Part shown: positions 24,748-29,422 of the stretch, in pieces
How positions within the stretch are numbered: the first letter of the stretch is position 1
How the letters are laid out: each line of letters begins with the position of its first letter
Assembly: GCA_030447505.1 (NCBI GenBank)
Contig: JAUJOT010000002.1
Coordinates: forward strand, 558,001-622,000
Reading direction: 5' to 3'
Length of the DNA stretch: 64,000 nt
Origin: Solirubrobacteraceae bacterium
Lineage (GTDB): Bacteria > Actinomycetota > Thermoleophilia > Solirubrobacterales > Solirubrobacteraceae
Position numbers and translations under genes: made by a program
The notes under the pieces: model-generated
Told to the model about the DNA's origin: nothing
Databases searched by the model: none
What the model saw: the letters and a program-made list of their open reading frames with translations, nothing else

Positions 24748-25604
24748 GGCGGCGTCCCGATCCGCGCGATCCGTCGCACGCAGACGAACGCGACGACCTG
24801 CAGCGCAAGCGCCAGCGCGACCATCGCAGCCGTCAGCGGCGCCGAGGCCAGGGCGAGCACGAAGCCCGGCTGCGCGAGCTCGCCGAGCGCCAGGCCGGCG
24901 GCCGGCAGGCCGGTCACGAGCAGCGCGGTGAAGCGTGCCTGCGCCGTCGCCGAGCGCGCATCGGCGACAACGCGCCCGCGCTGCTCGAGGGCGGCGGCGA
25001 GGTCGCGCAGCAGCGTCGCGAGGTCGCCGCCGGAGTCGCGCTGCAGCAGCACGGCGGCGGCGAGCGTGTCGAGCGGCCCGTGACCGGCGCGCTGGGCGAG
25101 CGCGCGCAGGACGTCCTCGGTGCGCTCGCCGAGCTCGAGCGCCGCGGCGACGAGGCGCAGCTCCTCCCCCGCCGGCCCGGTCACGCCGCCGCCGCCCGCG
25201 GCGGCCGTCAGCGCGCCGCGGACGGACTGGCCGCCGGCGAGCGCGTCGGCGACGGCGCGGGCGATCGCGGGCGCCCCCGCCGCGACGGCGACAGCGCGGC
25301 GGCGGCGGCGCATCCGCACGACGAAGCGCGCCGCCCACGGAGCAGCCGCCCCGAGCACGAGCCCCGCCCACGGGCCTGCGACGAGCCAGCCGGCGCCGAG
25401 CAGCGAGAGCGCGCCGAGTGCCGCGACGCGCCGCCGCTCGGGGCTCGTCGGCTCGCGTCCCGAGCGCACGACGTCGAGCGCCGGGGCGAGCCACGCGCGG
25501 ATCGGGCGCACGACGCGCTGCTCGTCGACGGCGGCGATCGCCTCCCACGCGGCGAGCACGGCACAGACGCCGGCCAGGCCGGCGAGCAGCACCGCGCCGG
25601 TCAC
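24744..25604 (-). CDS. Second-locus TadB-type F-domain protein
   Basis: The GTG at 25604 (VTGAVLLAGLAGVCAV) overlaps the tadA-type stop by 4 bases. The 286-residue protein has N-terminal and central hydrophobic segments, the F-domain core PAIARAVADALAGGQSVRGAL and QRDSGGDLATLLRDLAAAL, and C-terminal helices (LTAAMVALALALQVVAFVCV). Unlike its counterpart in the first locus it has no vWA domain. It should pair with the TadC-type protein as platform for the second TadA. Confidence 0.88.
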   Translation of the reverse strand: MTGAVLLAGLAGVCAVLAAWEAIAAVDEQRVVRPIRAWLAPALDVVRSGREPTSPERRRVAALGALSLLGAGWLVAGPWAGLVLGAAAPWAARFVVRMRRRRRAVAVAAGAPAIARAVADALAGGQSVRGALTAAAGGGGVTGPAGEELRLVAAALELGERTEDVLRALAQRAGHGPLDTLAAAVLLQRDSGGDLATLLRDLAAALEQRGRVVADARSATAQARFTALLVTGLPAAGLALGELAQPGFVLALASAPLTAAMVALALALQVVAFVCVRRIARIGTPP

Positions 25605-26803
25605 GCCGCCTGCGCCTGCGACAGCCGCAGCGCGAGTGCGGAGCCGAGCGGTGCGCGCCAGGTCGGGCGCCCGTCGCGGAGCGCGTACAGCTCCCGCGTG
25701 GCCGCGCCGCCCGCGACCCGCACGACCTCGCTCACGGCGACCACGCAGCGCGCGCCGGCTGGCATCCGCGCCTGGTGGACGACGAGGTCCAGCGCGCCCG
25801 CGACCTGCTCGCGAACCGCCTCGTGCGGCAGGCCCAGCCCGGCCATCAGCGCAAGCGTCTCGACGCGCCGCAGCGCCTCCTCCGGCGAGCCCGCGTGGAC
25901 CGTCGACAGCGAGCCGTCGTGGCCGCTGGACATCGCGCTCAGCATGTCGAGCGCCTCGGCGCCGCGCACCTCGCCGACGACGATGCGGTCCGGTCGCATC
26001 CGCAGCGCGTTGCGCACGAGCCGGCGCACCGTCACCTCGCCGCGACCCTCCAGCGAGGCCGGGCGCGCCTCGAGCCGGACGACGTGGGCGTGGCGCAGGC
26101 GCAGCTCGGCCGCGTCCTCGACCGTCACGATGCGCTCGCCGGCGCCGATGAACTCCGTCAGCGCGTTGAGCGTCGTCGTCTTGCCCGAGCCCGTGCCGCC
26201 GCTGATCAGGATGTTGCAGCGTGCCCGCACGGCGCTTGCGAGCAGATCGCGCAGCGGCGCCGCCCAGGTGCCGTTGGCGACGAGATCGTCGGGCCCGAAG
26301 CCGCGCGGGCGAAAGCGGCGGATCGTCAGGATCGAGCCGTCGAGCGCCAGCGGCGCGACGACGACGTTGACCCTCGATCCGTCGGGCAGCCTCGCGTCGC
26401 ACAGCGGCTCGGCCTCGTCGACGCGGCGCCCGAGCGGCGCGAGGATCCGTTCGATCGCGTGGCGCAGCTCCGCCTCGCCGCCGAACTGCGCCCCGGTCGG
26501 CTCGATCCGCCCGCCGCGCTCGACCCAGACCTGGCCGGGACCGTTGACCATCACCTCGTCGACCGTCGGATCGCCGAGCAGCGGCTCGAGCGGGCCCAGC
26601 CCGAACGAGCGCTCCGCGACGCGCGCGGCGAGCCGCGCGCGGGCGTCGTCGTCGAGCAGGCCCGCCTCGCGGTCGACGAGCGCGCGGATGCGCTCGTGCA
26701 GGTCACCCGCCGTGCCGTGCCTGCCGGCCTCGGCGAGCAGGCGGTCGCGCAGCGCGCCGGCGAGCGCGTCGAACGCGTCGTCGCGGGCGTGGTCGTGCTC
26801 CAT
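25601..26803 (-). CDS. Second-locus TadA/CpaF-type ATPase
   Basis: 400 residues, with the TadA family segments DPTVDEVMVNGPGQVWVE (about 78-95), DARLPDGSRVNVVVAPL, Walker A GGTGSGKTT at 202-210, TVEDAAELRLRHAHVV, and RPDRIVVGEVRGAEALDMLS. It is shorter at the N-terminus than the first-locus TadA. It opens the second operon (tadA-tadB-tadC) and is preceded by the G-tract element described at 26811-26842. Confidence 0.94.
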   Translation of the reverse strand: MEHDHARDDAFDALAGALRDRLLAEAGRHGTAGDLHERIRALVDREAGLLDDDARARLAARVAERSFGLGPLEPLLGDPTVDEVMVNGPGQVWVERGGRIEPTGAQFGGEAELRHAIERILAPLGRRVDEAEPLCDARLPDGSRVNVVVAPLALDGSILTIRRFRPRGFGPDDLVANGTWAAPLRDLLASAVRARCNILISGGTGSGKTTTLNALTEFIGAGERIVTVEDAAELRLRHAHVVRLEARPASLEGRGEVTVRRLVRNALRMRPDRIVVGEVRGAEALDMLSAMSSGHDGSLSTVHAGSPEEALRRVETLALMAGLGLPHEAVREQVAGALDLVVHQARMPAGARCVVAVSEVVRVAGGAATRELYALRDGRPTWRAPLGSALALRLSQAQAA

Positions 26804-26810
26804 GCCTCAG

Positions 26811-26842
26811 ATAGGGCGCGGCACAGCGCGATTCGCCCCCCC
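26811..26842 (-). promoter_or_regulatory. G-tract bipartite element upstream of the second tadA
   Basis: On the minus strand GGGGGGGCGAA is followed after 12-13 bases by GCGCCCTA, the latter ending 8 bases before the ATG. Two further copies precede the kinase and regulator genes at the same distance from their starts. It looks like a promoter or a regulator-binding site. Confidence 0.6.
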
Positions 26843-26879
26843 GCCGGCTCCGCTGCTCTTGCGGTCTTCGATCAGGCGG

Positions 26880-27130
26880 CTACGGCCACTCGATCGGCGC
26901 CGGCGGAAGCGGAGCCGCCTCGAACGGCGGGTAGACGCTGCCGAACGGCTGGTGGTCTGAGCACGTCGGCGAGTCGTAATCCGGCAGGCACGGGTTGCTG
27001 AGCGCCAGCGTCGCCGACCCGTGGGGCCTTCCACATGAGGTGCTCCTGCGCGCTCGTCATGCCGTCTCCGTCGTAGTCGCTGCCGCCGTCGCCGCCGTCG
27101 AGCGCGTTGGGGTAGGGCCGCTTGCCGGCA
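26880..27130 (-). pseudogene. Remnant of an EF-hand-type secreted protein
   Basis: Between cpaB2 and tadA2 the minus strand reads GKRPYPNALDGGDGG, then SDYDGDGMTSAQEHLMWKA, an EF-hand/dockerin-like calcium loop (DxDGDGxxxxxE). After a frameshift at about 27020 a second frame continues LALSNPCLPDYDSPTCSDH and PFGSVYPPFEAAP to a stop at 26882-26880, with amino-acid composition of a real protein rather than noise. No start is visible upstream. This is the C-terminal end of a gene that lost its 5' part and suffered an indel. Family unknown. Confidence 0.6.
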
Positions 27131-27164
27131 TCGGTGGACGCTTGCCGACGAGACGGCCTGCGTG

Positions 27165-27863
27165 CTACGGAAGCTCGGGCATCATCCGCAGCCCGCCGCG
27201 ACCGCGGCTGCGGTCGCCGATCGCGCGCGGCAGCAGGCGCAGCTCACGGGCGAAGTCCTGTACCGCCGCGAGATACACGGCCTGGCGCAGCGTCACCCGC
27301 AGCGATGCCGCGACACGCGGCCCCGGAGCGCCCTTGCCGACCGAGGCGTCGTCGCCCGTGAGCTCCGTCGCCGCGATCACCTCGACGTCCTCGAGCGCGA
27401 GCAGCGCCGCGCCCGGCAGGTCTGCGCGCGGCTCGGGCGTGACGAGCACATCGACGCGGCTGCCGGCGACGACGAGCTGCGGCGCTGCGAGCGCGACGAC
27501 CTGGGCGACGCGCTCGCCGCGTCGCACCGGCGCGCCGGCCGGTCGTGGCTCTTCTTCGCCGATCATCCCGGCCGTCAGGTCGCTGCCGGCGGGGATCGGG
27601 ACGCGGGCGCGCTGGCCGACGAGCTGCTGCGGGTCGCCGATCGCGCTGCGCGGCGCGAAGCGCTCGGGCACGCGGCGGACCGCGAGGGCGCGCTCGGGCA
27701 CGCGCTGGCCGGCGCCGATCGGCTCGTGAGCCACGACGACGTCGACGAGCCCGCCGACGCGGCGCTCGAGCGCGGCCTCGCGGCCGGCGACGTTGAACGC
27801 GGCCAGGCCGCCGAGCACGAGCGCCAGGCCGCCGAGCACCAGCGCGCGACGGCGGCGGCTCAC
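27165..27863 (-). CDS. CpaB/RcpC-like protein of the second Tad locus
   Basis: The GTG at 27863 overlaps the kinase stop by 4 bases and gives 232 residues. A basic start and one membrane helix (ALVLGGLALVLGGLAAF) precede a SAF-type domain (VDVVVAHEPIGAGQRVPERAL), then IPAGSDLTAGMIG and a segment VVAGSRVDVLVTPE, matching the RcpC layout. It ends with a 40-residue Arg-rich tail. It is separated from tadA2 by the EF-hand remnant. Confidence 0.82.
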   Translation of the reverse strand: MSRRRRALVLGGLALVLGGLAAFNVAGREAALERRVGGLVDVVVAHEPIGAGQRVPERALAVRRVPERFAPRSAIGDPQQLVGQRARVPIPAGSDLTAGMIGEEEPRPAGAPVRRGERVAQVVALAAPQLVVAGSRVDVLVTPEPRADLPGAALLALEDVEVIAATELTGDDASVGKGAPGPRVAASLRVTLRQAVYLAAVQDFARELRLLPRAIGDRSRGRGGLRMMPELP

Positions 27864-28579
27864 GGCGGCCGCCGCACGAGCGGCAGCTCGAGGCCGACCC
27901 GCGTTCCGCGCGGCGCCGACGCCGCCACGAGCCGCCCGCGGTGGCGCTCGGCGATCTGCGCCGCGATCGCCAGCCCGCGCCCGCGCCGCCCGCGCCCGCC
28001 GCGGGCGCGCCGCGTCAGCTGCGCAAGCGAGACGGGCAGCCCCGGCCCCTCGTCGATGACCTCGATGCACACGTGCTGCGCGCCGACGAAGCGCGCCGTG
28101 AGCTCGATGCGGCCCGGACCGTGCTCGAGCGCGTTGGCGATCAGGTTCGAGATCGCCTGCGCGAGGCGCAGGCGGTCGCCGACGATCCTCGTCCCGGGCA
28201 GCACGCATCCGAGCAGCACTCTGCTCTCGAAGGCGCAGGCGACCGCCTCCCAGCTGTCGAACTGCTCCTCCATCAGCTCGGCGACCTCGACCGGCTCCTC
28301 GCGCTCGAGGATCCGCCGCCCACTGCGCGCGGCGGCGAAGTCGTCGAGCGCGAGGCCGGCCCGGCGCAGCTCGTGGTCGAGCGTCGCCAGGCGCTCGGGC
28401 GGCGCCTCGCGCCGGCGCTCCATCGTCGCGAGGCCGAGGCGTACGGCGGTCAGCGGGCCGCGCAGCTCATGGCAGGCGCGCGCGACGAGCTCGCGGCGGC
28501 GGCGCAGCTCGAACGCGGCGAGCACGGCGAGCGCAAAGCCGGCGGCTGCCAGCGCCCAGGGGAGGATGCTCGTGGCCAT
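27860..28579 (-). CDS. Sensor histidine kinase, short membrane-bound form
   Basis: 239 residues: one N-terminal membrane helix (LPWALAAAGFALAVLAAF) and no extracytoplasmic sensor domain, an H-box with phosphoacceptor His37 in ARACHELRGPLTAVRL, then an HATPase domain with the N-box NLIANALEHG, G1 VIDEGPGLP and G2 RRGRGLAIAAQIAERH. It probably phosphorylates the OmpR-type regulator encoded 51 bases upstream. Because it has almost nothing outside the membrane, it likely senses through a partner or the membrane. It has its own G-tract element. Confidence 0.9.
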   Translation of the reverse strand: MATSILPWALAAAGFALAVLAAFELRRRRELVARACHELRGPLTAVRLGLATMERRREAPPERLATLDHELRRAGLALDDFAAARSGRRILEREEPVEVAELMEEQFDSWEAVACAFESRVLLGCVLPGTRIVGDRLRLAQAISNLIANALEHGPGRIELTARFVGAQHVCIEVIDEGPGLPVSLAQLTRRARGGRGRRGRGLAIAAQIAERHRGRLVAASAPRGTRVGLELPLVRRPP

Positions 28580-28587
28580 GTGCTCGT

Positions 28588-28621
28588 AGTAGGCGCCGCG
28601 CGCAAGAAGTTCGCCCCCCCC
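28588..28621 (-). promoter_or_regulatory. G-tract bipartite element upstream of the histidine kinase
   Basis: GGGGGGGGCGAA (eight G), 13 bases, then GCGCCTACT ending 8 bases before the ATG at 28579. Same arrangement as the elements before tadA2 and the OmpR-type regulator. Confidence 0.6.
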
Positions 28622-28630
28622 TCGTCGCGC

Positions 28631-29383
28631 TCAGGCGATCAATCGCTCGTCGACCGCCGCCATGCGCGCCGGCGGCGCGTCCAGCAGCCGGTAGCCGACC
28701 CCCCACACGTTGACCACGTACCGCTCGCCGTGGGCGCCGAGCTTGTGGCGCAGCCGGCAGGCGTGCGAATCGAGCGTTCGCGTCGAGCCGCGCGAGCGGT
28801 AGCCCCAGATCGTCCGCAACAGCTCCTCCTTGGTGAAGACCCGCGTCGGGTCGGAGACGAGCGTGCGCAGCAGCGCGAACTCCTTCTGCGACAGCGCGAC
28901 GCGGTCGCCGTGCAGGCGCACCTCGCGCGACGGCGGGTCGACCTCGAGGGGCCCGGCTCGCAGGTGGCCGTGTGAGGGACGGTGATCGGCGCGGCGCAGC
29001 AGCGCCGCGATGCGGCCGCGCAGCTCGGGGTAGGAGAAAGGCTTGCAGACGTAGTCGTCCGCGCCGCGATCGAAGCCGCGGACACGGTCGAGCTCCGTCG
29101 CGCGGCCGCTGATGACCATCAGCGGCATCTCGGGGTTGATCCGGCTCGCCACGCCGTCGGCGCTGCGCACGCGGCGCAGCAGCTCGAGGCCGCTGCCGTC
29201 GGGCAGGCCGACGTCGACGAGCGCGATGTCGGGAAACCTGCGCTCGATCAGGCTCAGCCCGACCGCTGCGCAGTCCGCGACGAGCAGGTCGTAGCCGTCG
29301 GCGGAGAGGTTGTCGGCGAGGAACGTGCGCGTCGCGTCGTCGTCCTCGACGACGAGGATCGTGGAGGGTTCGTCGTTCGTCAT
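28631..29383 (-). CDS. OmpR/PhoB-type response regulator
   Basis: 250 residues. The receiver domain has the acidic pair in VVEDDDATRT, phosphoacceptor Asp57 (ALVDVGLPDG), Ser/Thr in VISGRA and Lys in DDYVCKPFSYPEL. The C-terminal winged helix is typical (VALSQKEFALLRTLV, TKEELLRTIWGYRSR, then RTLDSHACRLRHKL and VWGVGYRLL). The last ~20 residues form a short extra tail. It precedes the kinase with 51 bases between them and likely controls the second Tad locus. Start ATG 29383. Confidence 0.94.
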   Translation of the reverse strand: MTNDEPSTILVVEDDDATRTFLADNLSADGYDLLVADCAAVGLSLIERRFPDIALVDVGLPDGSGLELLRRVRSADGVASRINPEMPLMVISGRATELDRVRGFDRGADDYVCKPFSYPELRGRIAALLRRADHRPSHGHLRAGPLEVDPPSREVRLHGDRVALSQKEFALLRTLVSDPTRVFTKEELLRTIWGYRSRGSTRTLDSHACRLRHKLGAHGERYVVNVWGVGYRLLDAPPARMAAVDERLIA

Positions 29384-29388
29384 GTCCC

Positions 29389-29422
29389 TAAGAGGCGCGA
29401 AGTGGCGAAGGTTCGCCCCCCC
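29389..29422 (-). promoter_or_regulatory. G-tract bipartite element upstream of the OmpR-type regulator
   Basis: GGGGGGGCGAA, 13 bases, then GCGCCTCTTA ending 5 bases before the ATG at 29383. Third copy of the element in this locus; if the regulator binds it, this one would give autoregulation. Confidence 0.6.

What the first reader, a model, noticed from the sequence alone, without database searches (positions are those of the whole stretch)
26811..29422. Three copies of a G-tract bipartite element, each ending 5-8 bases before a start codon
GGGGGGG(G)CGAA, then 12-13 bases, then GCGCC(C)TA or GCGCCTCTTA occurs before tadA2 (26842-26811), the histidine kinase (28621-28588) and the OmpR-type regulator (29422-29389). 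In each case CGAA lies about 28-30 bases before the ATG. I found no other copy in the window. If the TA part is a -10 element, transcription would begin at or next to the ATG, giving leaderless mRNAs driven by an alternative sigma factor; otherwise the G tract may bind the local regulator. The pattern ties the three units of the second Tad locus into one regulon.
Basis: partly seen in the sequence, partly recalled or inferred. Interest (0 to 1): 0.72.

Follow-up and report, generated by a model that had tools for sequence, protein, structure and literature searches.

The report
Conserved promoter class controlling a pilus
The three G-rich repeats are real copies of a promoter found in front of the same pilus genes throughout a family of soil bacteria, and it probably answers to a self-regulating, membrane-attached sigma factor that controls more than the pilus.

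Summary
Three copies of GGGGGGCGAA-N12/13-GCGCC lie where stated and are the only exact copies in the 3.84-Mb genome. The element is conserved: most of 30 tadA2 orthologues in the family (Solirubrobacterales, Thermoleophilia) carry GGGGCGA(A/G)-N17-CCTA-like blocks at the start codon, and in other genera it also precedes the orthologous response regulator and kinase. In 146 family genomes a strict form gives 46 hits against 1 reversed control. In 28 of 32 tadA2 genes the -10-like CT lies exactly 11 nt before the start codon, so GGGGCGA falls at -36 to -30 and CCTAnn at -12 to -7 if the mRNA starts at the start codon. Other genes carry it with a leader, so it acts on transcription. The regulon is wider than Tad: radA, recQ, AbiEi/Uma2 genes and a single-copy ECF sigma factor fused to an anti-sigma zinc finger. 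That sigma gene carries the element across the order and is the best candidate for the cognate factor. Caveats: no RNA data; the sigma gene is truncated in this genome; comEA-comEC lack the element.

The parts
26804..26842 (-). Promoter element of tadA2: -35-like GGGGCGA 26839-26833, -10-like CCTATC 26815-26810; predicted start site = A of ATG at 26803
   Evidence: start site inferred from geometry
28580..28621 (-). Promoter element of the histidine kinase gene: -35-like GGGGCGA 28617-28611, -10-like CCTACT 28593-28588; predicted start about 2 nt before the ATG at 28579
   Evidence: start site inferred
29384..29422 (-). Promoter element of the OmpR-type regulator gene: -35-like GGGGCGA 29419-29413, -10-like CCTCTT 29395-29390; predicted start site = A of ATG at 29383
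   Evidence: start site inferred
25601..26803 (-). tadA2, TadA/VirB11-type secretion ATPase
   Evidence: Pfam T2SSE 3.5e-62; TIGR03819 4.7e-101, below its cut-off
27860..28579 (-). Histidine kinase
   Evidence: Pfam HisKA and HATPase_c
28631..29383 (-). OmpR-type response regulator
   Evidence: Pfam Response_reg and Trans_reg_C

Best explanation
Each element is the -35/-10 core of one promoter class: GGGGCGA(A/G) at about -36 to -30 and CCT(A/C)nn at -12 to -7, read by an alternative sigma factor of the ECF type. At tadA2 and RR transcription starts at the first base of the start codon (leaderless mRNA), at HK within about 2 nt of it; at other members the same core drives a leadered mRNA. The best candidate for the cognate factor is a single-copy ECF sigma fused to an anti-sigma zinc finger (zf-HC2) and a long C-terminal tail, whose own gene carries the element (positive autoregulation). 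Release of this sigma, probably by proteolysis as proposed for ECF52-type factors, would switch on the Tad pilus genes and their two-component system together with RadA, a RecQ-like helicase, AbiEi and Uma2 family genes and secreted proteins. Shown: the sites, their conservation, spacing and downstream genes. Inferred: promoter function, the start site, the identity of the sigma and the release mechanism.
For: Exact sites unique in the genome. Conserved at tadA2 orthologues across genera and at RR and HK orthologues. Hits against reversed controls: 46:1, 23:2, 32:3. Block spacing 24-25 nt and CT 11 nt before the start codon in 28 of 32, the canonical -35/-10 geometry for a start at the start codon. 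Same element with a 30-60 nt leader at Uma2 genes and at sigma genes of this genus. Sigma orthologue: Sigma70_r2, r4_2, zf-HC2; upstream score at least 10 bits in 51% of 79 loci against 0.5% of background windows. 19 of 21 motif-positive genomes have the sigma; the other two are incomplete (Fisher p 5e-5, not corrected for phylogeny).
Against: No expression data. In this very genome the sigma gene is truncated inside region 4 and the missing part was not found. In the small genomes of group g10 the variant searched for was found only at the sigma gene itself. About half of the sigma loci, mostly distant ones, score below 10 bits. Most genomes with the sigma have no hit to the strict pattern.
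Confidence: 0.65

Rival explanations
1. Same promoter class, but read by a different sigma factor; the zinc-finger sigma gene is only one member of the regulon.
For: The candidate sigma is truncated in this genome although its three sites are near-perfect. Another sigma-like gene also carries the element (L172 in G137).
Against: The element is conserved before this one orthologue across the order and the two co-occur.
Confidence: 0.25
2. Binding site of the local OmpR-type regulator (RR), which activates its own gene, the kinase and tadA2.
For: RR and HK are themselves behind the element here and in other genera.
Against: Position fits -35/-10, not an upstream activator site; no direct repeat typical of OmpR-type sites; the element stands before many non-Tad genes.
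Confidence: 0.07
3. Chance G runs of a GC-rich genome, or slippage-prone G tracts for phase variation.
For: Runs of 7-9 G occur at some copies.
Against: Only four G are invariant and many orthologues have 5-6; controls exclude chance.
Confidence: 0.02

Closest known systems
ECF52/ECF48/ECF53 sigma factors of Actinobacteria, e.g. SCO4117 of Streptomyces coelicolor (PMC5826349, PMC8999054)
   Same: ECF sigma fused to a zinc-finger anti-sigma domain and a long C-terminal extension; autoregulation suggested; release by proteolysis proposed.
   Different: The published putative SCO4117 motif is CSGYN-17bp-SRHA, not GGGGCGA-N17-CCTA; no carbohydrate-binding domain was detected here; the regulon here includes a Tad pilus, radA and recQ rather than antibiotic and sporulation genes.
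Leaderless promoters of Actinobacteria (from general knowledge)
   Same: -10 element ending about 6 nt before the start codon, no leader.
   Different: A strong, unusual -35 block (GGGGCGA) and CCTA at -10 instead of TAnnnT.
Competence regulons driven by a dedicated sigma, such as ComX of streptococci (from general knowledge)
   Same: A sigma-type promoter in front of pilus, radA and recombination genes.
   Different: comEA-comEC lack the element here; DNA uptake is not shown.

Membership tests
ECF-type sigma promoter and regulon | Two conserved blocks with fixed spacing at -35 and -10 | tested here: met
   spacing 24-25 nt between blocks in 31 of 32 tadA2 promoters; positions relative to the real start site not known
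ECF-type sigma promoter and regulon | Element before the gene of the cognate sigma (autoregulation) | tested here: met
   that this sigma is the cognate one is inference
ECF-type sigma promoter and regulon | Cognate sigma reads the promoter | not testable with these tools
   needs in vitro transcription or a deletion
ECF52-like fused sigma | Sigma regions 2 and 4 plus zinc finger | tested here: met
   L116: Sigma70_r4_2 and zf-HC2 above cut-off, Sigma70_r2 just below it
ECF52-like fused sigma | Carbohydrate-binding domain at the C-terminus | tested here: not met
   no such Pfam match in L116
ECF52-like fused sigma | Transmembrane helix in the extension | not tested
   a hydrophobic Ala/Gly-rich stretch is seen by eye in L116; no predictor was run
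Leaderless promoter | Transcription start at the start codon | not testable with these tools
   geometry agrees; no RNA data
Competence regulon | comEA/comEC under the same promoter | tested here: not met
   no convincing element in 15 comEC loci

The most novel reading that the evidence does not exclude
A membrane-tethered ECF sigma of Solirubrobacterales commands a regulon that joins a Tad pilus to DNA-processing genes (RadA, RecQ, nucleases), a DNA-interaction or uptake programme outside known competence regulons. Its gene is also a recurrent integration site whose 9-18-kb insertions split the -35-reading region and may switch the regulon off and on by excision.
Probability: 0.15. Interest if true: 0.75.

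Novelty: new member of a known kind. Interest (0 to 1): 0.55.

Why it matters
It gives a specific promoter sequence, a candidate sigma factor and a testable regulon for an order of Actinobacteria for which the searches made here found no described promoter of this kind. It predicts that the second Tad pilus is made only when a tethered sigma is released, and that its key genes are translated from leaderless messages.

Tried and rejected
Competence regulon in the strict sense: comEA-comEC loci lack the element. Operator of the OmpR regulator and chance: see rivals. Covariation of promoter variant with sigma in group g10: the GGGGAA..TGCTYTAGA variant was found only at the sigma gene itself; in most g10 genomes tadA2 directly follows cpaB and has no promoter of its own. 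C/A variation inside the -35 block does not match between tadA2 and sigma in G017. The missing half of the sigma gene was sought in this genome without result. Literature searches for Solirubrobacter leaderless promoters, ECF sigma in Thermoleophilia, and Tad with ECF sigma found nothing relevant.

Full report
OBSERVATION. The three elements are present as described. GGGGGGCGAA occurs three times in the window, and GGGGGGCGAA-N10-15-GCGCC occurs three times in the 3.84-Mb genome against none for the reversed pattern. The genes behind them are a TadA-type ATPase, a HisKA/HATPase_c kinase and an OmpR-type regulator.

CONSERVATION. In the same genus the strict pattern precedes a tadA2 orthologue and other genes. 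Of 30 tadA2 orthologues fetched from many genera of the family, most carry the element, some in a degenerate form, directly before the start codon, and further orthologues confirm it. Some lack it (e.g. L091, L106), for instance where tadA2 follows cpaB without a gap. In 10 tad2 loci of other species a weight-matrix scan finds its strongest hits at the start of tadA2, of the response regulator or of the kinase; one other site of 16 bits lies in L275. Family-wide, GGGGCGARNTTC-N12/13-CTA-N7-10-RTG gives 46 hits against 1 control and GGGGCGAAYNTC-N8/9-GCGCC gives 23 against 2. Within the genus, GGGGCGAR-N16/17-CTA-N7-10-RTG gives 32 against 3 (tests).

GEOMETRY. In 32 tadA2 promoters the CT of the second block lies 11 nt before the start codon in 28, and the distance between the blocks is 24-25 nt in 31. 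If transcription starts at the first base of the start codon, GGGGCGA occupies -36 to -30 and CCTAnn -12 to -7, the canonical places of -35 and -10 with a 17-nt spacer. Uma2 genes, and sigma genes of this genus, have the element with a leader of about 30-60 nt. The element is therefore tied to transcription and not to translation. In the window the RR and tadA2 copies predict leaderless mRNAs and the HK copy a start about 2 nt before the ATG (inference).

REGULON. Downstream genes (domains): tadA2, RR, HK, a secreted pilin-like protein, DUF192, RadA/Sms (TIGR00416 above cut-off; also in this genome), a RecQ-family helicase in four species, AbiEi_4 proteins (one with DUF559 above cut-off), Uma2, PDDEXK_5, an IS200-like transposase protein, small membrane proteins (one in this genome, C10:245899), large secreted proteins, and ECF-like sigma factors. 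comEA-comEC do not have the element.

CANDIDATE SIGMA. One sigma orthologue, matched once per genome in 74 of 146 genomes, has Sigma70_r2, Sigma70_r4_2 and zf-HC2 domains. Its upstream region has the element in most of the fetched family genomes. In 79 loci of Solirubrobacterales from a second collection, 51% score 10 bits or more against 0.5% of background windows; the two sets overlap in species. Of 21 genomes with strict hits 19 have this sigma, and the other two are incomplete. Fused zinc-finger ECF factors of Actinobacteria (ECF48/52/53) are thought to be released by proteolysis (PMC8999054). SCO4117 is the studied case, with a different putative motif, CSGYN-17bp-SRHA, and suggested autoregulation (PMC5826349). 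The sigma here works like them, but no carbohydrate-binding domain was found, so it is not filed as ECF52.

WEAK POINTS. The sigma gene of this genome is cut off inside region 4 and the rest was not found. In three other genomes the gene is split at the TKVN codons of region 4 by insertions of about 9, 10.6 and 18.4 kb with both halves present; in G005 a serine recombinase gene follows the break. The sigma gene thus looks like a recurrent integration site. Whether this genome's sigma is dead, split or misassembled cannot be told. Everything about function is inference from sequence.

VERDICT. A real, conserved promoter class with a probable leaderless start, belonging to an ECF-type regulon that includes the second Tad locus.

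Noticed in passing
L281 (G014), L290 (G137), L286 (G141), L262 (G005): The ECF sigma gene is split at the same TKVN codons of region 4 by about 9-, 10.6- and 18.4-kb insertions with both halves kept; in G005 a serine recombinase gene follows the break. It looks like a recurrent integration site, comparable to elements in sigK or comK.
   Followed up: partly
G000:C5:185236-185628 (L261): In the window's own genome the sigma gene ends abruptly after ELRALWLRAQG; the missing region 4 and zinc finger were not found in the genome.
   Followed up: partly
L265 (G012), L266 (G016): The N-terminal half of the sigma gene is fused in frame to a piece resembling a large secreted protein, suggesting a DNA rearrangement.
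   Followed up: no
L116, L172, L133, L125, L159 (own genome C10:245899): Sigma factors and small membrane proteins behind the element have Pro/Ala-rich tails that often end in a similar EFG-type C-terminus (e.g. EFGF, SEFGD, GEFRP).
   Followed up: no
window 26850-27160 (-): Between cpaB2 and tadA2 the minus strand shows what may be a decayed calcium-binding-repeat gene (DGDGMTSAQEH).
   Followed up: no
L185 / G003:C38, upstream of the RecQ-like gene: A second GGGGGGCGAACTT copy lies back to back with the RecQ promoter element, suggesting a divergent pair of promoters.
   Followed up: no
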